Below, piece after piece: positions 5,759 to 22,494 of a stretch of 64,000 nucleotides of DNA; position 1 is the stretch's first letter; the number at the start of each line of letters is the position of its first letter. The notes under the pieces were generated by a model that saw only the letters and a list, made by a program, of their open reading frames with translations, was not told the origin of the DNA and searched no databases. Where the stretch lies: assembly GCF_003386665.1 (NCBI RefSeq), contig NZ_QTUB01000001.1:3658001-3722000 (forward strand), written 5' to 3'. This DNA is from Xenorhabdus cabanillasii (GTDB taxonomy: Bacteria; Pseudomonadota; Gammaproteobacteria; Enterobacterales; Enterobacteriaceae). Position numbers and translations under genes: made by a program.

Positions 5759-6232
5759 ATGAAATCGAAGATAATACTTTCTGAGCCTGAACGAATCACA
5801 TTGCAACAACTTGCTTTGAATCATCCACATCGGGACATTCGTACGCGAGGAACGGGTTTGCTCATGCTTGCCAGAGGGATCAAGCCGTCCCAGATCACCG
5901 CTGAAATCGGATGCAGTCTCCGGGTTATCTATAATTGGGTTCACATGTGGCACAATTCAGGGATAGCGGGATTATTAGGTGGTCATGCCGGAGGCCGGTA
6001 TCTCGCCATGACGCCTGACATGATTGCCACTGCGGTCGAAGCGGCCAGCGCAGAGTCCCTGACACTCGCCCGGATAGCTCAGTGCGTTGAGGCAAAGCAT
6101 GGTGCCCTGCCTTGTACGCTTGAAACGCTGGCAAATACCCTGAAAAAGCAGGGGCTCACCTATAAACGAACCCGACTGTCGCTTAAAAAAAGCGTAACGA
6201 AACGGAGTTTGCTAAAAAATCCGCCTTGCTGA
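5759..6232 (+). CDS. IS630-family transposase, N-terminal frame (orfA)
   Basis: 157 residues carrying the helix-turn-helix DNA-binding region of IS630 transposases (residues about 20-75, including SLRVIYNWVHMW followed by a Gly-rich turn) and the linker to the catalytic domain. It stops at 6230-6232, where the catalytic frame (-1) is already open. On its own it would be a DNA-binding protein without catalytic residues; the full enzyme needs a -1 frameshift near residue 152. Confidence 0.85.
   Translation: MKSKIILSEPERITLQQLALNHPHRDIRTRGTGLLMLARGIKPSQITAEIGCSLRVIYNWVHMWHNSGIAGLLGGHAGGRYLAMTPDMIATAVEAASAESLTLARIAQCVEAKHGALPCTLETLANTLKKQGLTYKRTRLSLKKSVTKRSLLKNPPC
6214..6220 (+). promoter_or_regulatory. 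Programmed -1 frameshift site (A AAA AAT)
   Basis: In the orfA frame the codons are CTA AAA AAT, giving the canonical slippery heptamer A AAA AAT. A -1 slip here enters the orfB frame (AAA AAA TCC) and joins the DNA-binding and catalytic parts. A second A-run at 6185-6191 is a weaker alternative. IS630 elements are known to use this kind of shift. Confidence 0.7.
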
Positions 6233-6762
6233 ATAAAATTAAGGCTGGAGCACAGTTAGGCCATTACCGTCTGCTCTATTTCGATGAGGCGGGTTTTGCC
6301 GCGTCTCCTCCGGTGCAATATGGATGGAGTCCACGGGGTAAGCCCCATAAAACTGAGCCTCGAGAGCATGACAGACGGTCAGTTCTGGGGGCGTTAAATT
6401 ACACGGATAACACGCTGTTTTACCAGACAACGTCAGGCAGTATCACGCGCGATGACGTGATTGATTTTTTAGAGCAGGTCGCCAAACAAGGGGACAACCG
6501 CCTGACATTTTTAGTGTTGGATAATGCGCGTATCCATCACGGGATCGAAGAACAAATCAGAAATGGCTGGTTACGAGAACACAACATGTTTTTATTCTAT
6601 CTTCCCGCTTACAGCCCAGAGCTGAATTTGATTGAGATCGTCTGGAAACAGGCCAAATACCATTGGCGACGTTTTATCACTTGGACTCAGAATACAATGG
6701 AGCATGAATTAAATACTTTATTGAAAGGTTATGGCGACCAATTTGCAATTAACTTTTCTTGA
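6226..6762 (+). CDS. IS630-family transposase, catalytic DDE frame (orfB)
   Basis: 178 residues from the first methionine-type start, although the frame is open from 6187 and is most likely translated by frameshift from orfA. Catalytic motifs are visible in order: YFDEAG (first Asp), VLDNARIHH (second Asp) and YSPELNLIE (Glu). Length and motif spacing match the DDE domain of IS630 transposases, and no internal stop is present, so the element may still be active. Confidence 0.85.
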   Translation: MLNKIKAGAQLGHYRLLYFDEAGFAASPPVQYGWSPRGKPHKTEPREHDRRSVLGALNYTDNTLFYQTTSGSITRDDVIDFLEQVAKQGDNRLTFLVLDNARIHHGIEEQIRNGWLREHNMFLFYLPAYSPELNLIEIVWKQAKYHWRRFITWTQNTMEHELNTLLKGYGDQFAINFS

Positions 6763-7106
6763 GTACTTAATAATGAATGTTAAGATAATGCTTAATGATT
6801 TTGTCATGTATTTCAATGAATTTTGAAAAAATATTTATCTCACCAGTTTCGTCAAGTGTTACATAAGCTCAGGTTGTATTATTCTGTACGCTATGTGTAA
6901 CGTTTACTGACAATATCAAGTCTACCCGCCAATACCTTTCTGTTTGTAGTGATATTTATAAATATTAATATCATCAGCCCCCATTTTTGATATTGATCAT
7001 ATGTAAAACTGCTGTAGAGTCGCAAATCGACAAACACAAAAATCCATTATCGTTATTTTAATTTTTTATTAATAGTAAGGTTGATCACTTTTGGATTTAT
7101 CATGAC
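6763..7106. other. Intergenic region and probable promoter region of the 7.1-18 kb cluster
   Basis: About 340 very AT-rich bases. No gene seen. It must hold the right end of the IS element and the promoter for the radical SAM gene, but I could not assign either with confidence. Confidence 0.4.
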
Positions 7107-8147
7107 GTGGAAAATAATATGGAAGAAACCATCGCCATTGCGAAGTATCCTATTGGTCTGAACCCGGCAAGGTTGTTTGCCGTACCTAAACTTAACTATG
7201 CGTTTATACGTATCAATAATATTTGTAATGCGCGTTGCGAATTTTGCGATGTCTGGCAAACGGCTCAGATTGATGCACATAAACAAATAGACATGGTTAA
7301 ACTCTGGCAAGAACTGGAGGCACTCTCACCACAGGAAGTCAATATTCATGGGGGTGAAGCCTTTTTATCAAAAGATTTTCTGGCTATTTTGGATTGTAAT
7401 AAAAATACACCGATTTCTATTACTACCAATGGAACGGCTTTATCAAAAAAGATTTTCAATCGTATACAAAATAAAAGCCATCTTGTCAGAAAATTTTATA
7501 TTTCCATTGATCATGTAGAACCTGAAAAAAATGGTGAATCGCGCGGCATTCGTTGGTTAACAAACAATCTTTATGATGCAATGGAATATATTAAGCAGGA
7601 AATACCGGCTTCGATTATTGTCGTCAATCATGTTGTGACTTCACTAAATTATGACACTATCGATAAGTTTCTGCTTAAAATGGCTGAACTGGGCGTTGAT
7701 GGTGTTAATCTGATCCCGATTAAAGATTACCCTCTGCTATTTTTAAATACGGCTCAAATTAAATTATTTATGCAGAAAATAACGACCCTGTTGGAAAATA
7801 AACAAATTTCACGTCATTTATTCATGGATGCCAACTACGAAATTTTCGGCCGCAATGAGGAAGATTATTCCCGCGCTGAAATGGGGAATTACAACGCTTC
7901 CAGCAAAAAAGCTTGTGCTATTCCACTGACAACACTATTCATTGATGCTGTAACAGGAAATGTTTACCCTTGCGATACTACGATGTATCGACCCAACCCT
8001 GAGCAGTATATTATGGGCAATGTTCTGGAGCATTCGCTGCACGATATTTGGCATGGTGATAAGTTCTCGCTGTTCCGTAAAAAAATGTATCCCGTCATCA
8101 CTTGCGATTGTATTAAAGGCTGTGATCCTGCCAATAGATTAAGGTAA
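7107..8147 (+). CDS. Radical SAM protein with C-terminal cysteine cluster
   Basis: 346 residues from a GTG at 7107; an ATG at 7119 is an equally good start. The cluster motif CNARCEFC (CxxxCxxC, residues about 37-44) binds the SAM-cleaving 4Fe-4S centre. A Gly-rich stretch NIHGGEAF follows, as in the radical SAM core. The last 70 residues hold several Cys (CAIPLT, YPCDT, CDCIKGCD), typical of SPASM/twitch domains that bind an extra cluster. First gene of a plus-strand cluster, four bases before the ATP-grasp gene. In blasticidin S and mildiomycin pathways a radical SAM enzyme (BlsE, MilG) decarboxylates the cytosylglucuronate sugar; a similar role here is inference from the neighbourhood, and a dehydrogenase of the BtrN type or a peptide-modifying enzyme are alternatives. 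Confidence 0.88.
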   Translation: MENNMEETIAIAKYPIGLNPARLFAVPKLNYAFIRINNICNARCEFCDVWQTAQIDAHKQIDMVKLWQELEALSPQEVNIHGGEAFLSKDFLAILDCNKNTPISITTNGTALSKKIFNRIQNKSHLVRKFYISIDHVEPEKNGESRGIRWLTNNLYDAMEYIKQEIPASIIVVNHVVTSLNYDTIDKFLLKMAELGVDGVNLIPIKDYPLLFLNTAQIKLFMQKITTLLENKQISRHLFMDANYEIFGRNEEDYSRAEMGNYNASSKKACAIPLTTLFIDAVTGNVYPCDTTMYRPNPEQYIMGNVLEHSLHDIWHGDKFSLFRKKMYPVITCDCIKGCDPANRLR

Positions 8148-8151
8148 CACG

Positions 8152-9495
8152 ATGTCTCTAGAAATACATATCAATAATCAGGCCAGTTTTCATCGCGGGC
8201 AGCCGACGATTTTCTGTATGCCGGATATCAAAGACAGTGAACGTTTTATTCAATTATGTTATCAACATAATGTAAATATGCTTCTGTTGATCAAGAAAAA
8301 ATGGCTGGACTCAACGGATTGTTCTTCAGCGTTGGCATATTTAGTGGTTGATGATCCGTTGGCTAATCATGCCGACAGAAGAATAATCGAGGCGCTGAAA
8401 CAGGTCCAAAAAACACTATCAATGACTACCGGACCCATTCACATCGACTATTTTATGGCTTTTTCTGAGCTGCATGTTGAATTGATGGCGACGATCGCAG
8501 CTCATATTAACCATGATATTCACCTTATTGAGGTGGCCCGATCATTTAGGGATAAGTGGATAATGCGCAAGATTGCCAATGAACATGGGCTTGATTGTCC
8601 CAAATTCACTCTGGCATCAGAGATGCTCATCTCCCCTGAACATTTCGAGGCGTTTACCGAATCAGTCGAGAATGCCGCCAAACACAAGGGCAATCAAGTC
8701 GGTTTTATTGTAAAGCCTCGCTCATTTTGGGGATCGATGGGTGTTACAGCATATTCAGACCGCACTTCTTTGCTCTGTGCATTACAGAAACTGGATTCCC
8801 CGGAAGAGTATCTGGTTGAGGAAAAAATCCAGGGCAAGTTACTGCATGTTGATACCGCCGTTTTCCAGCATAAGATACTCTATCAAGGCATCGGCGTTTA
8901 CGCTTGTTCATTACTCTTTGCCGATCAAACCGAACCCGGTCATTTTATGTGGCATACCATGTTGCCGGATTCTCCGGACAGCCACAGGTTGTTTGAATTT
9001 AACCGACGAGTATTGCAGGCATTCAATCTCGAATACGGTTTTACCCATACTGAAATTTTTATTGAAGAAAATACCGATAATTTGATACTTTGCGAAACCG
9101 CATCGCGTCCACCCGGACTCAGACTATTCGACCTTCATGCACAAGCCGATCATAGACATGCCTTTGATGTCTTTATCAACGCATTGATTTCTCAGTCTTC
9201 GATTAACAACACGCCTTCTTTCTCCACCAGGCACGCCGATCCCAATTGTATTGGCATGATCATTTTTAACCCACCGATTGGCAAAGTAGATGCCATAACA
9301 CCTGTAGACGAAATTATTGATGAGCATGTTATTGAATGGGAACAGTATGCCAAAACCGGCAATTATTTCTCCAACACCCATTATACTGAAAAAATGGGCT
9401 ATATTATTTGCTCTGCCAAAAACGAACATGAGTGTCTGCAACATTTAAATAATTACAAAACTAAATTCCACTATACAACCATAAAAAAAGATTAA
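8152..9495 (+). CDS. ATP-grasp carboxylate-amine ligase
   Basis: 447 residues. The central and C-terminal parts show the ATP-grasp fold: VKPRSFWGSMGV (ATP-binding Lys and loop), YLVEEKIQGKLLHVD (the EE at the nucleotide pocket) and HTEIFIEENTDNLILCETASRPPG (metal-binding acidic residues and the ligase Arg). Such enzymes activate a carboxylate as acyl phosphate and couple it to an amine. The spacing to its neighbours is four bases on each side, so it is co-transcribed with the radical SAM and exporter genes. In a biosynthetic cluster without an NRPS module it is the most likely enzyme to attach an amino acid or build a dipeptide. Substrates cannot be read from the sequence. Confidence 0.88.
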   Translation: MSLEIHINNQASFHRGQPTIFCMPDIKDSERFIQLCYQHNVNMLLLIKKKWLDSTDCSSALAYLVVDDPLANHADRRIIEALKQVQKTLSMTTGPIHIDYFMAFSELHVELMATIAAHINHDIHLIEVARSFRDKWIMRKIANEHGLDCPKFTLASEMLISPEHFEAFTESVENAAKHKGNQVGFIVKPRSFWGSMGVTAYSDRTSLLCALQKLDSPEEYLVEEKIQGKLLHVDTAVFQHKILYQGIGVYACSLLFADQTEPGHFMWHTMLPDSPDSHRLFEFNRRVLQAFNLEYGFTHTEIFIEENTDNLILCETASRPPGLRLFDLHAQADHRHAFDVFINALISQSSINNTPSFSTRHADPNCIGMIIFNPPIGKVDAITPVDEIIDEHVIEWEQYAKTGNYFSNTHYTEKMGYIICSAKNEHECLQHLNNYKTKFHYTTIKKD

Positions 9496-9499
9496 TGCG

Positions 9500-10711
9500 A
9501 TGATAAGAAGTCTGTTTCTCATTTCTTTAGTGATTAATGGCATTGGTTCAAGTATTCTCGCTGTCGGATATCCCTATATATTATTATCTGAAAATACACC
9601 AATGACATACTATTATGCTAATATGGGCGTTATATTTTTATTTACCTCTATCGGTGCTTTGTTATGGGGTTATAAAATTGATTATGCAACGGATATTTGG
9701 CAGTTTCGTATTGTTATATTATTGATTGAAATCTTTAGCACTTTACTATTATTGATATTATTAGTGAGTAAAATAGCATTTTCTCCTATTATGCTGCTTT
9801 TGTTTATTGCCACATTGGAGTTTCTTTTTGCCTATGAAATTCCGTGGTCACGGGTTGCCTGGCATGAACTTAATGGCTGGACAGAGCAACAAGGTGGTCA
9901 ACATTTAAATGTCTCTCTCTATATTGTTATTGCCACTTCACTTATTTCAGCCCTTGGCCCCGGATTGGGTGCTTTGCTGGGAATTACGCAAGGGATCGGT
10001 ACGATTGTGGCAATCAAGTTATTTTCCCTGCTACCTTATTTCTATGTCTGCTATCTTATGATGAAAATGCAGATAAAGCGTACAGCAGAACAAAAATCTC
10101 AGTTAACCGTTAGGCTACGTTCTGTATTTCAACAGCGCTATTATAAGACGTTTGCCATTGCTGTTGTCTTCACCATTTTTGCCAATGCGTTTCTGATGGT
10201 GGCACTGCCCGTTGTTGTCATGGAAAGTTTGGCGCATAAAAGTTATGGATTGGTCACCCTGTTCTATTTACTCAGTGCTCTGATCCCGATTTTCTGCACC
10301 ACCTTACTCAATAAAACCCGTGTTGATAACCATATCCAACGTTATCCCATTGCAATATTTATTAGTCTGTTGATATTTGGCATTCTGTTTTTTCAGCTAC
10401 CAACATTTTATGCAAAATCCTTTTTCTATTTGCTCTACAACATTGCAATAATTTATTTCAATGTGTTAATTACCAACATCATTTATCAAAAAGGATTGGA
10501 AATGCAACAAGGCCGGTTATTTTCTTTATTCCAGGTCACAATGAATTTCTCATTCCCAATAGCAGCAATTACCGTATCCATTGCGCCTGATTCCAGCCAA
10601 TATTTTTTACCGGTGTTTGGTTTCTCTATACTTTTACTGATGGCAATCGCTGTTTATTTCATCATTCAGATAAATAAAGTCCCTGCTCCACTGCATCATT
10701 GGCGCAGGTGA
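9500..10711 (+). CDS. MFS-type transporter, probable product exporter
   Basis: 403 residues, mostly hydrophobic, with about 11-12 predicted membrane segments (for example residues 1-25, 45-60, 75-95, 150-175, 210-235, 250-265, 280-300, 310-335, 350-375, 380-395). The layout of two six-helix halves separated by a charged loop (near residue 190-205) fits the major facilitator superfamily, although the classical loop 2-3 motif is weak. Four bases after the ATP-grasp gene. The cluster context suggests export of, or self-resistance to, the cluster product. Confidence 0.75.
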   Translation: MIRSLFLISLVINGIGSSILAVGYPYILLSENTPMTYYYANMGVIFLFTSIGALLWGYKIDYATDIWQFRIVILLIEIFSTLLLLILLVSKIAFSPIMLLLFIATLEFLFAYEIPWSRVAWHELNGWTEQQGGQHLNVSLYIVIATSLISALGPGLGALLGITQGIGTIVAIKLFSLLPYFYVCYLMMKMQIKRTAEQKSQLTVRLRSVFQQRYYKTFAIAVVFTIFANAFLMVALPVVVMESLAHKSYGLVTLFYLLSALIPIFCTTLLNKTRVDNHIQRYPIAIFISLLIFGILFFQLPTFYAKSFFYLLYNIAIIYFNVLITNIIYQKGLEMQQGRLFSLFQVTMNFSFPIAAITVSIAPDSSQYFLPVFGFSILLLMAIAVYFIIQINKVPAPLHHWRR

Positions 10712-10745
10712 TATTAATAAGTATATTCGTTATTAGGATAATAAT

Positions 10746-11891
10746 ATGTCATATCTTAGACCTTATCTCGGTAATACCAAGATTGCTGATAATGTACAAT
10801 TCCGCTTGCAGACTGTCCTTGATAATAAAGCGGTATTCAGGTATGCCACAGAGAGCCAATATTGCTTTCAGGCAGAAAAGTTGTTGCAAAATATCCTGCA
10901 TACTCAACACGCCATTCTCATCACAAATGGCACTGTTGCGCTTAAAGCTGCCCTGCTTGGGCTCAGACCCAAAATAGGGCAATGGGTGCTCATTCCTTCC
11001 ATCTCATTTATCGCGACAGCCAACGCTGTACTGAGTTGCGGATTAATCCCTGTCCTTGTTGATGTCGATGACAATGGCATGATGTGTCCAATAGCACTGA
11101 AACGCACATTAAATCATCTGGAGACAAAACCTCTGGCAGTCATTGCCGTTCATCTGGAAGGGACTCCCGCTTCAATCGCTGAAATCACCCAGATTTGCCA
11201 GCAACATCATGTGCACCTGATTGAAGACTGTGCGCAAGCGATGGGAGTGAAATACCAACATCAGCCTGTCGGTACATTTGGTGAGTATGGTTGTTTCAGT
11301 TTTCAGGCCAATAAATTAATCAGCAGCGGTGAAGGCGGTTTACTGATTGCCAAAAATCTCCCCCTGTTTATCAATGCCTGCATGATGACTGACCACGGCG
11401 CTGAACGTACAGCAGAGGGCTATCCAGATTGGCGCAATAGTATTGGTTTTGGTGACAATAATAAATTCAATGAAATACAAGCTACCTTGCTGATTGACCA
11501 ATTAGAAAATATCGAACAGTTTCGCACTTTGTTAACCGCGCGTTATCAAGAAATTCTGCAACATCTGCCCACAGATTGGGTCACTCCACGCCCGGAAGGT
11601 ACGATCCCCGTCTCTGTCTGGCTAAAACGCAGCAAATTGCCCGCAGATCGTTGCAATTCAACCCTGCTATATGATTGGAAAGCATGGGATTTAGCTAATC
11701 ACCCGATTATAAAAAATCAACTTTCGCCCTACTCTGACCATTTTCCCTGGAGTCTGCACCAAGATCCGCTCCCTGTACCAGAATTAGCGAAGCACCCTGC
11801 GATAGTGGCTGATCGCATTTGTCTGCCCGTGCCTATTGATAATGCAACTTATGAAAATGTCTTACAGTGGGTGGAAGGAAAGCCAGCATGA
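10746..11891 (+). CDS. DegT/DnrJ/EryC1/StrS-type PLP-dependent aminotransferase
   Basis: 381 residues, the normal length of the family. Visible family features: TNGTVALKAAL (cofactor phosphate binding, residues 58-68), LIEDCAQAMG (Asp pairing with the pyridine nitrogen), and FSFQANKLISSGEGG with the Schiff-base Lys. These enzymes usually transfer an amino group to a keto sugar or cyclitol, sometimes dehydrate. Its stop overlaps the next start (ATGA), so translation is coupled. In nucleoside antibiotic clusters the same family (BlsH) aminates or deoxygenates the sugar ring; a sugar aminotransferase is the most likely role here. Confidence 0.9.
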   Translation: MSYLRPYLGNTKIADNVQFRLQTVLDNKAVFRYATESQYCFQAEKLLQNILHTQHAILITNGTVALKAALLGLRPKIGQWVLIPSISFIATANAVLSCGLIPVLVDVDDNGMMCPIALKRTLNHLETKPLAVIAVHLEGTPASIAEITQICQQHHVHLIEDCAQAMGVKYQHQPVGTFGEYGCFSFQANKLISSGEGGLLIAKNLPLFINACMMTDHGAERTAEGYPDWRNSIGFGDNNKFNEIQATLLIDQLENIEQFRTLLTARYQEILQHLPTDWVTPRPEGTIPVSVWLKRSKLPADRCNSTLLYDWKAWDLANHPIIKNQLSPYSDHFPWSLHQDPLPVPELAKHPAIVADRICLPVPIDNATYENVLQWVEGKPA

Positions 11892-12748
11892 TATTAAATA
11901 ACAACTTTTTCACCCAACCTGGTAATAACAATCAGCCAGTCCAGTATGTGTTGGGCGGCTCTTGTATCTGTTACGCAAAAGGCATTCCCGCCCGGCTTTC
12001 ACTACAGGATTTGATCGATTCTCTGCTGCCGGCAATTATCGCTTCACAACACAATGCCCCGGTTTATCTCTATTTTCAGTCTCATGAAGCGATCATGATG
12101 GCCGATTTATTGCATTTTGATCCTACACAGGCCAACCATACGACAATGAGGGCATGGCTGGAAGCCGGCATTATTTATACGTTGGAACAACTAAATATAC
12201 CTTTACCCCCAATTTATTGGGTAGATACATCCGAGGATAAGATCCGCCAGCATCTTGATCAGTGGGTTCCCCATATCAAGACGGTTTTGCCACCATCAAG
12301 GCTATATGGCCTTTATGCTAAAAAACCGGATGCCACTTATCCGCAGGGAACCGATGAAGAACAGATGATGCTGGATGTGTATTACCGCAATATTACTCTT
12401 TACACTCCCGAATTCCTCAACGCAGCCCTTGGTATTCCCCCAGAACACACCCTGTTTGTGGAAAATACCACGCAACAAAAAGCCATCCAGATTTACTATC
12501 ATGCGACTGGACAAAATTGCAACATATTGCTTTACCATCCGGCACCCAATACCCAAGGTAAAGAAATGTGTTTGGGTAATAGCAATCATAAAATCGAATT
12601 ACGTCTAACCACCAAACAGATCATACATCGTGCCGCTAAAATGGGTCATGAGGATTATTACCAGGCTATCTTTAACCCACATTCTGTTGTGGATATCATG
12701 CAGGGCTGGCAAGCAAAGGTTTTGGACAATAAACGTTTTGAGCAATAA
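11888..12748 (+). CDS. Unrecognised cluster protein, 286 residues
   Basis: Start chosen at ATG 11888, which overlaps the stop of the aminotransferase gene by ATGA and follows a GGAAGGAAAG ribosome-binding site; a GTG at 11867 would extend it but lies inside the previous gene. The protein is soluble, without signal peptide or membrane helices. Visible features are VLGGSCICYAKG near the N-terminus, GTDEEQMMLDVYYR in the middle and two short His-containing stretches (LLYHPAPN, RAAKMGHEDYYQ). I recognise no family. Position in the middle of a coupled operon makes a biosynthetic or tailoring role likely, and the lack of a clear family makes it worth a structure-based search. Confidence 0.8.
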   Translation: MILNNNFFTQPGNNNQPVQYVLGGSCICYAKGIPARLSLQDLIDSLLPAIIASQHNAPVYLYFQSHEAIMMADLLHFDPTQANHTTMRAWLEAGIIYTLEQLNIPLPPIYWVDTSEDKIRQHLDQWVPHIKTVLPPSRLYGLYAKKPDATYPQGTDEEQMMLDVYYRNITLYTPEFLNAALGIPPEHTLFVENTTQQKAIQIYYHATGQNCNILLYHPAPNTQGKEMCLGNSNHKIELRLTTKQIIHRAAKMGHEDYYQAIFNPHSVVDIMQGWQAKVLDNKRFEQ

Positions 12749-12760
12749 AGGTATTGGGCA

Positions 12761-14152
12761 ATGAAGCATAAGACCGTTGTTGTTGTTAGAGGAACACCGG
12801 CAAGTGGCAAATCCACTACGTGTAACCAATTGAAAGAGGCCATGTTGGCACAGGGGTTAACGGTTTCCTATTTACCGTGGGATACTTTTCATCATTTCGT
12901 TGAACCACGATCACACCTTACGCAAAAAATTATCATGGAAGATACCTTGCGACTATTAAAGGTGGCGGATGATTGCCTTGATGCCGGTAGTGATCTGATT
13001 ATTCTGGATGGCGTATTCATTTATCCTGAAGAGATTGACGCCATTCATTGCCGGTTTACCCGAAAAAATGTCCGAATTCTGCATTACCGACTGGTTGCAC
13101 AGGAAGCAACACTGATTACCCGTAATCAGGAACGCGCGATCGAAGATCGTTTGCCCACTTGCCGGATAAGAGAAGTTGCTCAGGATAGTTTGTGGAATAA
13201 CAATGTCCCTGATGAAACGTTGCTGGATAGCGCGAAATATTCTACAAACAGGATAGTGGCACTGATAAGCCAAGCGATTATGCAGCAATCTGCGCCAGTT
13301 CCAGTTGACGTCTTCGCCAATCCAACAACTTCACCTTTATGGCGTCTGGGAACGGTGCTGCGTTACCCAGAACTCAAACGTTTTAAGCATATTGATTTGG
13401 TCTGGCAAGAAAACCACCAGCAGTGGCAAAGCAATACTTTCTTCGATTTCACCTTTACGGCGAAAGAAGAAACAGAATTACTCGCTTTTTTACAGCAACA
13501 ATCTCAAGCCATTGTATTTAAGTATTTGAATGCTGAGTCCCACGCTTATCACTATTTACATCATTTAGCGCAGCAGCATGGATTACACTGCCATGCAGAG
13601 AGTAAATGGTTAGCCCCCATTGCCAATATCCCGCCGCGAACAACGGTAACTGATTTTTTGATCCGGCACTCAACACGATTAAAACGCAGCCTGAAAAAAG
13701 CACGTGGCTACAGTACCGTCACTCGTTACAGTACCTCAGGGCAGACTGAGCAATTATGGCAAGATGCCTTATGTGTCGATGCCAGAAGCTGGAAAACCAC
13801 TCAGCAAAGTGATATGCGCAGCCTGAACCGTGAAGATCTCCAGTATCTCCCCGGTCTGTTATCCAAAAGTAACCAATACCATCTGGCTGTCACTTATGAT
13901 GATACGGGTACGCCCGGCGCTTGGTCATTGATGCTAAATGACGGCGCGGGTCAATGGTATGCTGCTAAATGGGGTTGCAGTCATCAAGGCAGAGAAAGCC
14001 TGATGGGGATTAATTGTCTGATGGATCATCTTGAGAGGCTTTACTGCCCTGATACCGGCCTTCAGGTTGATCTCTGGGGCAGAAACAATGAATTCTATGA
14101 CCAATTAGCCAGTCAGTATATTGAACGGCTTCATCTCAGGATCACCCCATGA
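12761..14152 (+). CDS. Fusion: P-loop kinase domain + FemAB/GNAT-type acyltransferase domain
   Basis: 463 residues. Residues 1-170: P-loop small-molecule kinase with Walker A GTPASGKST, a Walker-B-like DLIILDGVF and an Arg-rich lid segment, comparable to zeta-toxin, chloramphenicol phosphotransferase and APS kinase domains. Residues about 185-463: a domain resembling the FemAB/CelD-type acyltransferases (basic helix HSTRLKRSLKKARG, ARSWK, then a C-terminal half ending in a LWGRN motif). Known FemAB-type enzymes transfer an aminoacyl group, often from tRNA. The combination suggests phosphorylation plus aminoacylation of the same scaffold. Ends in an ATGA overlap with the next gene. The fold assignment of the C-terminal half is less sure than that of the kinase. 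Confidence 0.78.
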   Translation: MKHKTVVVVRGTPASGKSTTCNQLKEAMLAQGLTVSYLPWDTFHHFVEPRSHLTQKIIMEDTLRLLKVADDCLDAGSDLIILDGVFIYPEEIDAIHCRFTRKNVRILHYRLVAQEATLITRNQERAIEDRLPTCRIREVAQDSLWNNNVPDETLLDSAKYSTNRIVALISQAIMQQSAPVPVDVFANPTTSPLWRLGTVLRYPELKRFKHIDLVWQENHQQWQSNTFFDFTFTAKEETELLAFLQQQSQAIVFKYLNAESHAYHYLHHLAQQHGLHCHAESKWLAPIANIPPRTTVTDFLIRHSTRLKRSLKKARGYSTVTRYSTSGQTEQLWQDALCVDARSWKTTQQSDMRSLNREDLQYLPGLLSKSNQYHLAVTYDDTGTPGAWSLMLNDGAGQWYAAKWGCSHQGRESLMGINCLMDHLERLYCPDTGLQVDLWGRNNEFYDQLASQYIERLHLRITP

Positions 14153-14991
14153 TAGCTGACCACAATAACCTATTTTCGGAAAATATCATCCACTATGGCG
14201 ACTCGGTACGAGACTTTTTCCGTAAAGATCTACAGGATATAGCGCCTCAAGGTGACTGTCTGATGCCGGAGTGGATATGTCAGAGTATGGTTGAATCCGT
14301 TTACGCCGCTAATTGGCAGCCGCGCTTCTATCCTGTTCTGTCGCCAGAACAGGCCAGCGTGGTTTTACAAGCGGATATCCACGCGATGATGGACATGCTA
14401 AATGCCCTGCCACAACCCTGCGCCGTACTTCTCGCCCATCCTTTAGGTTATATCGATCCGGAATGTCTGGCATTTTTGCAGCAAAAGCAAAACATCCCCC
14501 ATGTTCATGTGTTTCTGGATCTTTCTCAGGGCTATGGCAGGGAAAATTGCCTACAGGAACTCTTGCATGTTCATGCTGCGTATTATTCTTTCAACGGCAA
14601 TAAACTTATCCGTACTGGTGGTGCATTACGCCTTCGCCTGACAAACAGAAAGCCTGTTCCCGCCTCGGTCAGAAATATTTTCACGGCGTTTTATACCGCC
14701 GCTGAAGAAAAATTTGCGGCATTAAGAAACCAGCTAAAATTTCATGCCATTGAAGATGATATTCACAATGCCTCACTGTACGCTGCTTATCAATCAAGTC
14801 CCTACCGCACTGTATTGGATTGGGAGAAATGCTCTCCTTCTCTGCAAACATTGCTTAAACATCAGGGACTGATTCAGCCGTTACTCGCTGAACCCCGACA
14901 AGAAAAAGGGCTTTTAAGCTCAAATTATCATCAATGGTGTGAGAGCATCATGTTGATGTTCAGTTCACCCAGAGTTGAATGGAGTCAGTAA
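14149..14991 (+). CDS. Reduced DegT-like PLP-fold protein
   Basis: 280 residues, about 100 shorter than true DegT aminotransferases. The sequence keeps YYSFNGNKLIRTGG, which matches the Schiff-base-lysine segment of the DegT family, and HVFLDLSQGYG, matching the segment with the pyridine-pairing Asp. The N-terminal cofactor phosphate-binding TNGT-type motif is not seen and the C-terminal subdomain is short. It may be a partner of the full-length aminotransferase encoded upstream, or a specialised enzyme such as a sugar dehydratase. The start overlaps the previous stop (ATGA). I infer the fold from two motifs only. Confidence 0.7.
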   Translation: MIADHNNLFSENIIHYGDSVRDFFRKDLQDIAPQGDCLMPEWICQSMVESVYAANWQPRFYPVLSPEQASVVLQADIHAMMDMLNALPQPCAVLLAHPLGYIDPECLAFLQQKQNIPHVHVFLDLSQGYGRENCLQELLHVHAAYYSFNGNKLIRTGGALRLRLTNRKPVPASVRNIFTAFYTAAEEKFAALRNQLKFHAIEDDIHNASLYAAYQSSPYRTVLDWEKCSPSLQTLLKHQGLIQPLLAEPRQEKGLLSSNYHQWCESIMLMFSSPRVEWSQ

Positions 14992-14992
14992 A

Positions 14993-16093
14993 ATGCTAGA
15001 ACTCAAACAAGTTACCCCGCAATCTCCCTTGTGGAATTCATTTCTTCATCTTTATGGCGAATATTTTCAACGCTATTGGCCGGACGTTTTTGGCGATCTG
15101 TCAGAAGAGGCGATGGCAAAAGAAAACCATACCGCACTTGAACAACGCATCCTGCAAGGTGACAGGGGGCTGTTTTTGTTGCTGAATGCCGGGCAATTGG
15201 CGGGATTAGCCAATGTATATCTTGAACGGGAAGAATTTGGGCAGGAAGAAAAAGTTACCCTGAATATTGCTGAATTTTATATCAGGGATGAATACCAACG
15301 CCAAAAGCTAGGTCATGGATTATGGCATGCCATGTTGCAATGGGGACGACGCCACGGTGCAACCCAGGTTCATCTGGAGACCGATGTCGGTAAAAGTGCC
15401 AACTTTTTTTGGCAATCCCATGGGCTTTCAAGCCACCAAGTCGATGAGCGTGTGCACTACCATGGCCCCATACCTCCCCTAAAGATACTGTGGTTAAGGC
15501 ATGGACAAATTATCCCGCTTGATCATCTGGATTATTGCCCTGAAGATAATTTAATCGCTCTTGATGCGACTTCCATCAAACAAGCTAAAGAAATCGGTAT
15601 CCGAATACTGGGGAAACTGCCGTGGCAAACTATTTATACTTCGCCCCAACGTCGGGCATTTGAAACTGCCAAAGCATTGAGTTCAGCCAATAAGTCTTGT
15701 TTAATACAAGAAACGGAGGCACTTTGTGAATTCTTTCCAGAAGAGCTTATTGGCATGAAGCTGGCAGATATTCCGCATCGTTATGGTGAAGATTATGCCC
15801 ATCGGTTGCTATATACCCCCCTTGATTCGCCTTTCAAAAACTCAGAACAGGTAACGGATGCCGCCAACAGAATTCATCGTTTTATCATGCAAATGGGTGA
15901 TGAGCTTTCAATGTCTTCCATGCGAATGATTGTTTCCCATCAAAATTTGCACAATATTTTCTTGGCTCATTTAATGACACGCGATCTCAATCTTTCTGGG
16001 CGATGGCATCTTAATCATCTTCATGGCAGTACTTTTTTATATTGCCCTTACACTAAACAGTTTGATGTGGAAAATGTAAATATTCCTTTATGA
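14993..16093 (+). CDS. Fusion: GNAT N-acetyltransferase + histidine phosphatase
   Basis: Start at ATG 14993 with GGAG eight bases upstream, preferred over TTG 14975 which lies inside the previous gene; 366 residues. Residues 1-150: GNAT fold, with the beta-4/alpha-3 acetyl-CoA loop (REEYQRQKLGHGLW-like, seen as DEYQRQKLGHGL). Residues 158-360: histidine phosphatase of the phosphoglycerate mutase type, with the catalytic WLRHGQ motif, TSPQRRAFETA, and SHQNLHN containing the second His. In biosynthesis such phosphatases remove a protecting phosphate from an exported, inactive precursor, which would match the kinase domain two genes upstream; the acetyltransferase could equally be a self-resistance activity. 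Domain calls are firm, roles are inference. Confidence 0.85.
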   Translation: MLELKQVTPQSPLWNSFLHLYGEYFQRYWPDVFGDLSEEAMAKENHTALEQRILQGDRGLFLLLNAGQLAGLANVYLEREEFGQEEKVTLNIAEFYIRDEYQRQKLGHGLWHAMLQWGRRHGATQVHLETDVGKSANFFWQSHGLSSHQVDERVHYHGPIPPLKILWLRHGQIIPLDHLDYCPEDNLIALDATSIKQAKEIGIRILGKLPWQTIYTSPQRRAFETAKALSSANKSCLIQETEALCEFFPEELIGMKLADIPHRYGEDYAHRLLYTPLDSPFKNSEQVTDAANRIHRFIMQMGDELSMSSMRMIVSHQNLHNIFLAHLMTRDLNLSGRWHLNHLHGSTFLYCPYTKQFDVENVNIPL

Positions 16094-16102
16094 GAGAGTA
16101 AC

Positions 16103-17326
16103 ATGTTGAAAAACGCTCCCTGTATTATCTTTGACGCCGATCCATTCTGTTTTGGCCCAATATCCACCACGTTAAATGTAGTGGAAAAATTAAGGCGCCG
16201 AAATAAATTAATATCAGGCACTAAATTTATTTTGCTGGGTACACTCACTTCTTCCCAATTAGGCCAAAAATCCGGCTTATTTGATGCTGTTTATGAATGT
16301 GATACCACTGCTGTTACCGAGCTCTCACGCTATTGTGAACTTATTTCAGGTGCAAACTTGTATATCAGCAATACTAATCCTAACTCAATTAATTTCGTTT
16401 CGAAACTTGATACTCCCACTATCTATATCGATACGCTATTTTGGATGTGGGACAATCTTCATGTCGATCTGCACCAAACCGAGAAAACATTCATTCAGAA
16501 CTTTCACGGAATAGAACGCAATATTGAACGATTCCAAAATAAGCTTGGCAATTATCAAGTGATACCACCGATTCTCCACAGCTCCCTGCAACAATATATG
16601 ATGGATGAGCGTACGATGGATGAACATTCACCAGAAGGCGTGTTAATTACACTTGGTGGTATTGATACCGTCTACGCCGATACCACCGATTTTTATTACC
16701 ATTTTCTGGCAGAATTATTGTCTATCCCTTATCTGCAACATGAAACTCATATTACTATTGCGGGTGGAGGCAAAACGATCGTCAATCTGGCAGATAGGTT
16801 TGCCAAAACGCATCCTCATATTAATATTGGCTGTTTTGCAAGGCATGATTTTCTGCAAAAATTACGCCGTGCCCGTAAGGTATTAGCCAATCCAGGTCTT
16901 ACAACATTTTATGAGTGTGTCGCTCTCAATAAGGATGTCTTTTTCTTACCACCACAAAATTATAGCCAGCAATTACAATTAGACGTTTATCTGCAACATT
17001 ATTATAGTCATGAATACGGTTTCTTATGGCAACCAGAATATGGTTACCCGGATATTCCCCCATATCTGCCGGAGAAAGAGGGATTAGCGTTAATTAAAAA
17101 ATGTAATGACTTATTTATTAATAACCCCACAGAAAGAAAACGAGCGATGGATATGATCAGCCAATTTTTCGCAAAAGAAAAAAACCACCCTGATTTTTGT
17201 CATAACATTTACCCAAACGATATTTCCAAAAATGACATTTTCCCAAAAAATGCAGATGACATTATTGTTAGTTATATTGAAAATCGGTTTTCCAATCAAA
17301 AATTGGAAGATGGCACTCTAATTTAA
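16103..17326 (+). CDS. GT-B-fold glycosyltransferase-like protein
   Basis: 407 residues. The C-terminal half has the nucleotide-sugar-binding pattern of GT-B enzymes: LITLGGID, a second beta-strand THITIAGGGKT, then ANPGLTTFYECVALNKDVFFLPPQNYSQQLQ-type donor-site region (residues about 265-295, with the conserved Glu and the Pro-rich strand). This arrangement is shared with MurG/PseG-like proteins and with cytosylglucuronate synthases (BlsD, MilC) of nucleoside antibiotic pathways, which join a free base to UDP-glucuronate. Here the next gene encodes a probable nucleotide N-glycosidase, which would supply the free base. Nine bases after the phosphatase-fusion gene. Confidence 0.78.
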   Translation: MLKNAPCIIFDADPFCFGPISTTLNVVEKLRRRNKLISGTKFILLGTLTSSQLGQKSGLFDAVYECDTTAVTELSRYCELISGANLYISNTNPNSINFVSKLDTPTIYIDTLFWMWDNLHVDLHQTEKTFIQNFHGIERNIERFQNKLGNYQVIPPILHSSLQQYMMDERTMDEHSPEGVLITLGGIDTVYADTTDFYYHFLAELLSIPYLQHETHITIAGGGKTIVNLADRFAKTHPHINIGCFARHDFLQKLRRARKVLANPGLTTFYECVALNKDVFFLPPQNYSQQLQLDVYLQHYYSHEYGFLWQPEYGYPDIPPYLPEKEGLALIKKCNDLFINNPTERKRAMDMISQFFAKEKNHPDFCHNIYPNDISKNDIFPKNADDIIVSYIENRFSNQKLEDGTLI

Positions 17327-17399
17327 CGATAAAATAATAATGGGAATATAATTTATTCAAATGATAATCCTGTAATGTTTGTATAAAAATAAATTATTA

Positions 17400-17518
17400 T
17401 CAGCTACGTATATATTCTATAAACTTCAAGTTGCAGCTTGCAAGACGAAAACCGCTTATTATCTCCCCGCACTGCGGAAAATAATAAATGCATCATGAAG
17501 TACGACGAGTATAAACAT
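17400..17518. repeat. Dispersed palindromic repeat, long variant
   Basis: Left part TATATTCTATAAACTTCAAG, right part ending in TGAAGTACGACGAGTATA, related to the short repeats near 31.3, 33.6, 58.1 and 59.05 kb. It separates the glycosyltransferase gene from the last cluster gene (221-base gap), unlike the tight spacing of the rest of the operon. Confidence 0.5.
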
Positions 17519-17547
17519 GAGATCTTATTTCTATAAGAGGAGACCCT

Positions 17548-18076
17548 ATGTCTATGATATTTTCTAATCTTAACGTATTTATTGGCGGCCCTATTCAACA
17601 TGCACTGAGATCCAGGGTATTAGACAATAATTTGCAAGTTCACATTAAATCGGCTATTCACCAATTGGAATCACTCGGTGCCAACGTTTTTTTCCGCTCA
17701 TCGCGCAGAGCAGTTTGGTGGAGCAACCCATCTATTTACACCGGAGGAAGTTTCCCAACGGGATCGCCAATGGATGGAACAGTGTGATATTTTTGTTGCC
17801 ATTTTGCCCGTCTGCCCACAACAAAAACAACTAATCAGAACGGATGGCACCCATATCGAATTAGGCTGGGCTTCCGCCTTAAAACGTCCAATTATACTGG
17901 TCACCGAACAACCCTTTAATCACTCTGCCAGCCATTTACTAAAAGGCTTATCAGCTATTGCTCAAGTTCATCATATTTCCCTGAATGATTTTGAACATGA
18001 TCCGGCTATATTAAGCCATACAATTCAATCCATAGCAGAAAGGCAAGTTACCCAAAAATCTTTAACCATGGCATGA
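17548..18076 (+). pseudogene. Nucleoside 2-deoxyribosyltransferase-like hydrolase, frameshifted in a T7 run
   Basis: Starts at ATG 17548 behind AGGAG. The first 47 or so residues are in one frame and the rest in the +1 frame; removing one T from the seven T at 17687-17693 restores a protein of about 175 residues reading GANVFSAHRAEQFGG. Family features: FIGGPI at the N-terminus (nucleotide-binding loop), VFSAHRAEQFGG, CDIFVAILP and RTDGTHIELGWASAL with the catalytic Glu. Members of this superfamily include MilB and BlsM, which cleave CMP or hydroxymethyl-CMP to the free base in mildiomycin and blasticidin S synthesis. The break could be a true mutation, slippage-tolerant or phase-variable, or a sequencing error. 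Confidence 0.8.
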
Positions 18077-18118: not shown

Positions 18119-18259
18119 CACCAATTTTCATTCATAATGAATGAGTATCTGAATGAGGGTGAACCAATTAGCTGTACCAACTAATTAATTCGTCACGCAA
18201 TTTTTCGGGTAATACTGCGAAAGGAAAACCCACGGGAATTGCTTTTATTGATTCCATGA

Positions 18260-18562
18260 GTTAGCCAGGAACTGGCGGACGATTTAGCGCAAACAGGTGC
18301 CACTTTCATCACGAAAAAACGCCGTAACATGAAAGCGAAGGCGCAGGCAGAGTGGGACAGGATAATGTTATTAAAGCGTTTTCTCATTGAAACCATTAAT
18401 GGTCAGTTAAAAGAAATTTCTCAAATAGAGCATTCTCGCCACCGAAGTCTAACAGGATTTCTGTTGACCGTTTTAGGCGGTGTGATTGCCTACTGCCTAA
18501 AATGGAAGAAACCATCACTGAAAATTTTCTACTCAGAAGAAGATGTTCCAGTGATGGTTTAA
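18260..18562 (+). pseudogene. IS982-family transposase, C-terminal remnant
   Basis: About 100 codons of an IS982 transposase end: VSQELADDLAQTGATFITKK, KRFLIETINGQLKEISQIEH and a hydrophobic LLTVLGGVIAYCL tail. The frame has a stop directly upstream at 18257-18259 and lacks the N-terminal two thirds with two of three catalytic acids, so it is an inactive fragment. Confidence 0.8.
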
Positions 18563-18633
18563 ACAGAACTCGGGTTAATTATAACTATTTGTTTCAGACC
18601 AGTCTTTGTCGGTGAGCGTGGAAGTTTGAAAAG

Positions 18634-22127: not shown

Positions 22128-22494
22128 AGTTATCTTCCTTTTATTCCATAAACTGACTATCATTCATGGTAATCAGCACATTATTCTGCGCAAATATCTG
22201 TCCTTCATTTTTTAGTTACCCCTTTGTTTATTGTAAATAGGTTAATTATGAATAGATTAGTTGTGAATAGAAATAAATTGCCTCCGGATAATATTAACAT
22301 TGATAAAACAGCTATAGATTAATAATATCGAAATAATCTTTCTATAATAGAAAATATTATTTTCATAACTCTTTTTTTCATCATCATTGTCAGACTGGCA
22401 TATGTTATTAGGCAAATATCACGCTATATAATAGGAATAATAGAAATAATGGAAACACGACTAAATGATGTATCCAAATATTAAGCAAATAAAA
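22128..22494. other. Intergenic region upstream of the Pro-NRPS
   Basis: About 370 very AT-rich bases separating two minus-strand units. It should hold the promoter of the NRPS-thioesterase pair. No gene or clear repeat seen. Confidence 0.4.

What the first reader, a model, noticed from the sequence alone, without database searches (positions are those of the whole stretch)
7107..18076. Candidate undescribed peptidyl-nucleoside-type biosynthetic cluster
Ten plus-strand genes, most coupled by 4-base gaps or ATGA overlaps, encode a nucleotide N-glycosidase-like protein, a GT-B glycosyltransferase, a radical SAM enzyme with extra Cys, a DegT aminotransferase, an ATP-grasp ligase, an acyltransferase and an exporter. 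Seen: domains and motifs. Known: blasticidin S and mildiomycin pathways use CMP hydrolase (BlsM/MilB), cytosylglucuronate synthase (BlsD/MilC), radical SAM decarboxylase (BlsE/MilG) and PLP aminotransferase (BlsH). Inference: this cluster builds a base-sugar scaffold, aminates it and adds amino acids by ATP-grasp and FemAB-like chemistry. Such a pathway in a Photorhabdus/Xenorhabdus-like genome, with these fusions, would be new to me.
Basis: partly seen in the sequence, partly recalled or inferred. Interest (0 to 1): 0.85.

Follow-up and report, generated by a model that had tools for sequence, protein, structure and literature searches.

The report
tRNA-flavoured blasticidin-type nucleoside gene cluster
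A ten-gene cluster, conserved in many Xenorhabdus insect-symbiont bacteria and found once in Bordetella, looks like a machine for an uncharacterised sugar-base antibiotic related to blasticidin S, with amino acids probably added by an unusual mix of enzymes that includes relatives of the cell's protein-making machinery.

Summary
The ten genes are real and collinear: all ten in 8 named Xenorhabdus loci and in Bordetella ansorpii (41.6-65.5% identity), dN/dS 0.03-0.29 in the Xenorhabdus pairs compared. Three genes point to blasticidin-type clusters: g10's best solved relatives are BlsM/MilB-type hydrolases; g9's only significant NCBIfam hit is CGA synthase, far below cut-off (46.7 of 300 bits); g4's top 3 of 400 plasmid records are two annotated bls-type loci and one unannotated locus with the same homologues. 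The radical SAM protein g1 is only remotely BlsE-like, and g2 does not point there.

New: g5, without a family match, is predicted to have a Tyr/Trp-tRNA-synthetase-like fold without HIGH; g6 fuses a P-loop kinase to a FemX/Sba18-like fold (low-confidence model). The usual site is yccS-[cluster]-sxy-sulA-ompA, with decayed remnants in some genomes, this one included. In this genome g10 is frameshifted.

Best reading: a proteobacterial branch of the blasticidin-type glycosyl-base pathway with tRNA-related aminoacylation. Product unknown; nothing tested biochemically; no description found in the paper searches listed.

The parts
6896..7106 (+). conserved upstream (promoter) stretch of the cluster
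   Evidence: 112-211 bases upstream of g1 are 71-85% identical between the window and each of the 8 other Xenorhabdus loci
7107..8147 (+). g1: radical SAM protein with SPASM/Twitch-type C-terminal cysteines
   Evidence: PF04055 8.8e-14, PF13186 1.7e-10; cysteine pattern shared with BlsE of L025 and L030
8152..9495 (+). g2: ATP-grasp carboxylate-amine ligase
   Evidence: PF13535 7.9e-8; LAL_C2 below its cut-off; 22 plasmid records with ATP-grasp relatives, 12 annotated NikS
9500..10711 (+). g3: MFS-type exporter
   Evidence: Bordetella orthologue hits MFS_1 2e-5, below the cut-off; the window copy has no hit
10746..11891 (+). g4: DegT/DnrJ/EryC1 aminotransferase, groups with those of bls-type loci
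   Evidence: PF01041 1.2e-57; plasmid search; tree
11888..12748 (+). g5: predicted class-I Tyr/Trp-tRNA-synthetase-like fold, no HIGH motif, degenerate KMSKS-like stretch; overlaps g4 by ATGA
12761..14152 (+). g6: N-terminal P-loop kinase fused to a FemX/Sba18-like GNAT fold
14149..14991 (+). g7: short protein partly similar to g4 (fold-type I PLP), Lys and Asp positions kept
   Evidence: BLASTP with g4 1.5e-4 over 125 columns; hhalign probability 39%; no Pfam hit
14993..16093 (+). g8: GNAT acetyltransferase fused to a histidine phosphatase
   Evidence: PF00583 2.3e-9, PF00300 2.9e-20; best NCBIfam model alpha-ribazole phosphatase, 52.6 of 162.9 bits
16103..17326 (+). g9: GT-B-like glycosyltransferase related to cytosylglucuronate (CGA) synthase
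   Evidence: TIGR04467 2.3e-12, the next hit being 0.023; 26% identity over 306 columns to the CGA synthase of L025; shared motifs
17548..18076 (+). g10: CMP N-glycosidase (BlsM/MilB) family gene, frameshifted in this genome
   Evidence: start and break; intact L007 orthologue: BlsM 1.3e-18 in PDB
5759..6762 (+). transposase split over two reading frames, upstream of the cluster (mobile context)
   Evidence: HTH_29 2.1e-12 and DDE_3 8.6e-32; the IS630 label is recalled

Best explanation
The cluster makes and exports a peptidyl glycosyl-base (most likely pyranosyl-cytosine) compound by a blasticidin-type logic. Proposed steps: (1) g10 cleaves a nucleotide (CMP by homology) to free the base; (2) g9 joins the base to an NDP-sugar, by homology UDP-glucuronic acid; (3) g1, a radical SAM enzyme with auxiliary-cluster cysteines, oxidises or decarboxylates the sugar; (4) g4 installs an amine on the keto group, with g7 a short PLP-like partner of unknown role; (5) g2 (ATP-grasp) ligates an amino acid, and the FemX-like half of g6 adds another from aminoacyl-tRNA, g5 being either a dedicated supplier or a transferase in its own right; (6) the kinase half of g6 and the phosphatase half of g8 phosphorylate and later dephosphorylate an intermediate, and the GNAT half of g8 acetylates an amine (tailoring or self-protection); (7) g3 exports the product. 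Shown: gene order, conservation, family membership and predicted folds. Inferred: every reaction, their order, the base and the product.
Against: g1 scores 28.4 bits (38.1 in Bordetella) against the BlsE model, cut-off 400, while a real BlsE scores 654.6; better models include maturases, its plasmid matches (4 records) are not bls loci, and BtrN and the peptide maturase SkfB rank above BlsE among solved structures. g2's 22 plasmid records include none of the three bls-type loci; only the Bordetella g2 matches the ligase of L025. g9 has 46.7 of 300 bits for CGA synthase; that model also rings faintly in Lactococcus lactis. g10 has Ile for MilB Phe22 and Gln for Arg23, so its substrate may not be CMP. 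In a further g9 record, S. microflavus, the g10 match is about 239 kb away. The g5 and g6 models rest on 8 and 11 sequences (pLDDT 70.7 and 58.0); sequence profiles do not link g5 to tRNA synthetases; Foldseek for g6 also lists acyl-CoA-type GNATs, with poor superposition. No tRNA gene in the window or 10 loci. 7 of 11 proteins of L030, BlsF, BlsG and the ligase among them, have no match in window, L007 or L015 at E<=0.01. g10 is broken in this genome, so the pathway may be off here.
Confidence: 0.65

Rival explanations
1. An N-glycosyl compound whose base is not cytosine: g10 frees another base and g9 uses a different donor and acceptor; the blasticidin resemblance is only common ancestry of the scaffold enzymes.
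For: Ile for Phe22 and Gln for Arg23 in g10; g10's closest plasmid relative (43-46% identity) lies in an Agrobacterium gene set with no CGA synthase, radical SAM or DegT gene among its 20 annotated features; g9 is far below the CGA cut-off.
Against: BlsM/MilB-type hydrolases are still the best solved relatives of g10 and CGA synthase the best family for g9; three loci share homologues of g1, g4, g9 and g10.
Confidence: 0.2
2. The cluster makes or tailors a peptide: the radical SAM enzyme is a peptide maturase, and ATP-grasp, FemX-like and GNAT proteins build or modify a peptide, with sugar enzymes as decoration.
For: Several of g1's better-scoring NCBIfam models are maturases; NRPS genes lie on both sides in this genome.
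Against: In most of the other Xenorhabdus loci examined the flanks are yccS and sxy-sulA-ompA, not NRPS genes; g9 and g10 would have no role. A short precursor gene was not searched for.
Confidence: 0.09
3. A non-antibiotic use of the same enzymes, for example a modified sugar or nucleotide for surface polysaccharide, signalling or symbiosis.
For: DegT, GT-B and GNAT enzymes are common in polysaccharide loci (established knowledge); product and target are unknown.
Against: A likely exporter, predicted aminoacyl-transfer enzymes, patchy presence (g5 in 16 of 30 Xenorhabdus genomes) and decayed copies look like a special metabolite; g4 groups with the DegT proteins of bls-type loci and not with the five other DegT enzymes compared.
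Confidence: 0.06

Closest known systems
Blasticidin-type loci: Kitasatospora sp. NBC_00039 (L030) and Streptomyces sp. NBC_00467 (L025, with beta-methylarginine genes)
   Same: BlsM-type N-glycosidase, CGA-synthase-related GT, radical SAM protein with matching C-terminal cysteines, DegT aminotransferase; gene types MFS exporter and ATP-grasp ligase also present
   Different: no match to BlsF, BlsG (arginine 2,3-aminomutase), the methyltransferase or the ligase of L030; gains tRNA-synthetase-like, kinase-FemX, second PLP-like and GNAT-phosphatase proteins; identities of the four shared genes 18-38%
Mildiomycin cluster (mil)
   Same: MilB-type hydrolase; MilC-type GT by the shared TIGR04467 model
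   Different: no MilA-like (thymidylate-synthase-like) hit among the ten proteins; Gln instead of the Arg/Lys of hydroxymethyl-CMP specific relatives
Ascamycin AcmF, an alanyl-tRNA-synthetase-like enzyme in the biosynthesis of an aminoacyl nucleoside sulfamate (PMC12945691, passages read)
   Same: a tRNA-synthetase relative used to put an amino acid on a nucleoside
   Different: alanyl-type synthetase, whereas g5 looks like the Tyr/Trp class-I fold; the other scaffold genes were not compared
GNAT-fold tRNA-dependent transferases (PacB, VlmA, Orf11, Sba18/Sbb17, FemX)
   Different: fused to a P-loop kinase; low-confidence model; no activity known
Cyclodipeptide synthases and class-I aminoacyl-tRNA synthetases
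   Same: g5's predicted fold; CDPSs also lost HIGH (PMC2922099, passages read)
   Different: g5 keeps a KMSKS-like stretch and shows no sequence-profile match
Puromycin-like clusters of Xenorhabdus bovienii and other species (PMC11641026, passages read)
   Same: nucleoside clusters in the same genus, proposed by their authors to use aminoacyl-tRNA
   Different: those centre on Pur6 and some carry a tRNA-Cys; no tRNA gene here; Pur6 similarity was not tested
4'-thiothymidine cluster thmABC of Photorhabdus (PMC12691670, passages read)
   Same: nucleoside product and radical SAM gene in a related genus
   Different: three genes: radical SAM, kinase, triphosphatase; the words ATP-grasp and glycosyltransferase do not occur in its text

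Membership tests
blasticidin/mildiomycin-type (CGA) pathway | CMP N-glycosidase (BlsM/MilB) gene | tested here: met
   intact L007 copy: BlsM 1.3e-18, further CMP hydrolases 3.5e-16 to 2.4e-13; Glu103, Asp78, Glu62, Gly99 kept, Phe22 and Arg23 not
blasticidin/mildiomycin-type (CGA) pathway | CGA synthase by NCBIfam cut-off (TIGR04467, 300 bits) | tested here: not met
   46.7 bits (49.4 Bordetella, 50.2 L013); only hit at E<=1e-5
blasticidin/mildiomycin-type (CGA) pathway | BlsE cytosylglucuronate decarboxylase by cut-off (TIGR04466, 400 bits) | tested here: not met
   28.4 bits (38.1 Bordetella); L025 BlsE as control 654.6
blasticidin/mildiomycin-type (CGA) pathway | DegT aminotransferase of the bls-locus type | tested here: met
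   joins three bls-type-locus DegT rows, 100/100, apart from 5 other rows; small tree, long branches flagged
blasticidin S itself | beta-arginine branch (BlsG aminomutase, methyltransferase) and BlsF | tested here: not met
   tblastn of L030 proteins against window, L007 and L015: no match at E<=0.01
mildiomycin | CMP hydroxymethylase MilA and Arg/Lys at MilB position 23 | tested here: not met
   no thymidylate-synthase-like hit in the ten proteins; Gln at that position
pyranosyl-cytosine antibiotic | product contains a cytosyl-pyranoside | not testable with these tools
   needs metabolite analysis
class-I aminoacyl-tRNA synthetase (g5) | catalytic-domain fold | tested here: met
class-I aminoacyl-tRNA synthetase (g5) | HIGH signature | tested here: not met
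   no H-x-G-H before helix 1 in any of 8 aligned sequences; the position is read from the predicted secondary structure
cyclodipeptide synthase (g5) | CDPS fold and catalytic residues | tested here: inconclusive
   CDPS chains at Foldseek ranks 33, 34, 37 and 44; catalytic residues not compared
FemX/GNAT aminoacyl-tRNA-dependent transferase (g6 C-terminal half) | double-GNAT fold related to FemX | tested here: inconclusive
NikS-type ATP-grasp ligase (g2) | specific relation to NikS | tested here: inconclusive
   12 of 22 matching plasmid records annotated NikS, but the three lowest E-values belong to other ATP-grasp proteins
puromycin-type Pur6 cluster | Pur6-like synthetase | not tested
   no Pur6 sequence was fetched; only the tRNA gene was looked for, 0 found in window and 10 loci

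The most novel reading that the evidence does not exclude
The cluster encodes a tRNA-dependent peptidyl-nucleoside pathway in which a HIGH-less protein derived from a class-I tRNA synthetase (g5) and a kinase-FemX fusion (g6) work as a dedicated pair to activate and transfer an amino acid to a phosphorylated glycosyl-base, next to an ATP-grasp ligase: a new enzyme combination on a blasticidin-type scaffold, giving a new antibiotic class from Gram-negative bacteria.
Probability: 0.28. Interest if true: 0.85.

Novelty: new variant of a known kind. Interest (0 to 1): 0.71.

Why it matters
The annotated blasticidin-type clusters met here both lay in actinomycetes. A coherent relative, conserved across Xenorhabdus and once in Bordetella and kept under purifying selection, points to an unexplored compound family in Gram-negative insect symbionts. 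If g5 and g6 act as predicted, they would show how a tRNA-synthetase fold without its ATP signature is used with a kinase-transferase fusion to attach amino acids to a small molecule. The proteins are of ordinary size, so most steps can be tested one by one.

Tried and rejected
Homologue searches in the large protein database could not be made, so no deep alignment was available for either structure model. Sequence links of g5 to tRNA synthetases were sought and not found: Pfam scan of 8 members, PDB searches (one chance hit at E 1.5), hhalign against this genome's TyrS and TrpS, probability under 1%; the assignment rests on the predicted fold. PDB searches with g9 found nothing. Rfam and ARAGORN gave no RNA gene. 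Wider searches found no further cluster: g9 in 3 of 295 genomes of the family, all the same genus; g5 in 1 of 369 genomes of the class, the own one, and in 1 of 268 of the Bordetella family, the same Bordetella; g6 full length in 2 Xenorhabdus of 299 genomes of the phylum, 6 others matching about 40 residues at the P-loop; TIGR04467 in 4 of 398, none over its cut-off, the two outside Xenorhabdus being short partial matches. These are samples, not all genomes. Seven proteins were searched in plasmids: g5 and g6 no match, g1 4 records and g2 22 records, none a bls-type locus, g4, g9 and g10 as described; g3, g7 and g8 were not searched there. Filing as blasticidin S, mildiomycin or thiothymidine-like was rejected (membership test; Closest known systems). 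That the neighbouring NRPS genes belong to the pathway was rejected because the cluster lies elsewhere in most other loci examined. A radical SAM tree with characterised maturases was not made.
Full report
OBSERVATION. Ten plus-strand genes lie in 7107-18076. Pfam and NCBIfam give: g1 radical SAM/SPASM, g2 ATP-grasp, g4 DegT, g6 N-terminal P-loop (AAA_33), g8 GNAT plus histidine phosphatase, g9 weak glycosyltransferase hits with CGA synthase as the only hit under 1e-5, g10 (C-terminal piece) nucleoside-deoxyribosyltransferase family. g3 and g5 had no hit, g7 one at 0.029. The nine junctions measure 4, 4, 34, -4, 12, -4, 1, 9 and 221 bases. The last gene starts at 17548 and its frame is broken in this genome at a run of T near 17690; 10 of 10 relatives aligned are intact.

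CONSERVATION. A scan of genome contigs with g9 returned 11 loci. All ten genes are collinear in 8 Xenorhabdus loci (L006-L012, L014) and in Bordetella ansorpii (L015, identities 41.6-65.5%); L016, titled a metagenome-assembled enterobacterial genome, holds g3-g10 and part of g2 at its contig edge; X. budapestensis (L013) holds only g9. In 30 Xenorhabdus genomes g9 is found in 21 and g5 in 16; in those 16 the two start 4.15-4.28 kb apart on one contig. The five with g9 but no g5 hold three full-length and two fragmentary g9 copies. dN/dS in five pairs among the window, L006, L007 and L010 is 0.03-0.29 for g1-g9; g10, without the window copy, was measured in two pairs (0.15, 0.11); against Bordetella dS is saturated. 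Sampled genomes outside this set gave no cluster.

CHROMOSOMAL HOME. In six records (L007-L009, L011, L012, L014) the cluster lies between yccS and sxy-sulA-ompA; L006 shares the downstream side (names from NCBIfam, and TfoX domains for sxy). Remnants of g8, g9 or g10 sit at the same site in two genomes (L043, L044), and a solo g9 follows a partly lost yccS in L013 (L040 is the same contig). The window's genome has a g9 remnant at this site (L005), while its ten-gene copy lies between NRPS genes (Pfam) beside a split transposase. X. szentirmaii (L010) shows neither flank. Upstream of g1, 112-211 bases match between the window and each of the 8 loci. So the cluster has moved and decayed.

RELATION TO BLASTICIDIN-TYPE CLUSTERS. 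Seven of the ten proteins were searched in 72,556 plasmid records. g9 matched 3; the best is an annotated CGA synthase (26.1%, E 9e-10) in a locus of Streptomyces sp. NBC_00467 with a BlsM-type gene beside it and annotated blsE, blsF, DegT, MFS and ATP-grasp genes. g10 matched 9 records, among them that locus, Embleya sp. NBC_00888 and Kitasatospora sp. NBC_00039; the last has annotated CGA synthase, blsE, blsF and blsG genes. The Embleya locus has no annotation but matches g1, g4, g9 and g10. g4 matched 400 records, and the three best-ranked are these same three (167-171 bits; the nine other rows listed have at most 139). Against this, g1 (4 records) and g2 (22 records) found none of the three, g5 and g6 found nothing, and in S. 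microflavus the g9 and g10 matches lie about 239 kb apart. In direct comparison g1, g4, g9 and g10 match all three loci, g1 weakly; in reverse, 4 of 11 proteins of L030 match (CGA synthase, BlsE, DegT, BlsM-type) and 7 do not (BlsH, BlsI, BlsL, BlsM as names for L030 genes are recalled). A 12-row tree joins g4 with the three loci's DegT proteins (100/100), apart from five others; long branches are flagged. g9 and CGA synthases share a D-[ST]-L stretch followed by W, a GG motif and a PGLTT-E-PPQN-SQ block. BlsD/MilC couples UDP-glucuronic acid with cytosine and BlsE decarboxylates the product (PMC3715490, passages).

SUBSTRATE HINTS. g10's best solved relatives are BlsM and MilB-type hydrolases. 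In the MilB paper (PMC4081090, passages) Phe22 stacks on the base, Arg23 reads the hydroxymethyl group, and the nine relatives without a linked MilA have neither Arg nor Lys there. g10 has Ile and Gln at these places (MilB row), and none of the ten proteins hits a thymidylate-synthase-like family, so hydroxymethylcytosine is unlikely; plain cytosine fits best, but the Ile leaves another base possible. g1 shares CxxxCxxC, C-x18-C and GC cysteines with the BlsE proteins of L025 and L030, yet scores 28.4 bits with the BlsE model. Its solved relatives are BtrN (SPASM part, 4.2e-8), an unnamed radical SAM protein (0.0017), SkfB (0.02) and BlsE (0.09). Dehydrogenation, as by BtrN (function recalled), followed by DegT amination is as likely as decarboxylation.

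LITERATURE. Nine searches in the open-paper library showed no listed title or abstract start describing this cluster; only passages of some papers were read. Nucleosides of the clade that I met: 4'-thiothymidine (PMC12691670, passages), puromycin-like clusters (PMC11641026, passages), a GTP-mimic prodrug operon (PMC9239236, listing only). A survey of Xenorhabdus and Photorhabdus clusters (PMC9177418) has none of the words nucleoside, blasticidin, cytosine, ATP-grasp in its main text. Subscription papers, preprints and supplements were not searched.

VERDICT. A real, conserved and mobile cluster, best read as a new proteobacterial variant of the blasticidin-type glycosyl-base pathway with tRNA-related aminoacylation (0.65; set down by 0.01 on rechecking that g1 and g2 searched alone do not find bls loci). 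The scaffold enzymes are supported by homology, the tRNA-related part by predicted folds only; the product is unknown.

Noticed in passing
17548-18076: g10, the N-glycosidase gene, is frameshifted in this genome while 10 of 10 aligned relatives are intact; a real loss or a homopolymer sequencing error.
   Followed up: partly
L013 10001-11146 (L040 is the same contig); L041; L042; L005 1522-2190: A solo g9-like gene (67-73% identity) is full length without other cluster genes nearby in three genomes and a remnant in the window's genome; it lies beside yccS in L013 and L005. Its own function is unclear.
   Followed up: partly
L015 11705-12271 (minus strand): Next to the Bordetella cluster lies a stand-alone GNAT protein related to the N-terminal half of g8 (41% identity), a possible self-protection acetyltransferase.
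   Followed up: no
L026 6378-14187: An Agrobacterium plasmid gene set around the closest plasmid relative of g10: 2OG-Fe oxygenase, diaminopimelate decarboxylase, creatininase-family, MATE exporter; looks like another uncharacterised pathway.
   Followed up: no
43259-58162: A 4967-aa NRPS with five condensation, four adenylation, four carrier and one thioesterase matches; further NRPS genes at 110-5419 and 19392-22163 flank the cluster.
   Followed up: partly
18240-18570: Transposase-like remnant between the cluster and the downstream NRPS genes, judged by eye.
   Followed up: no
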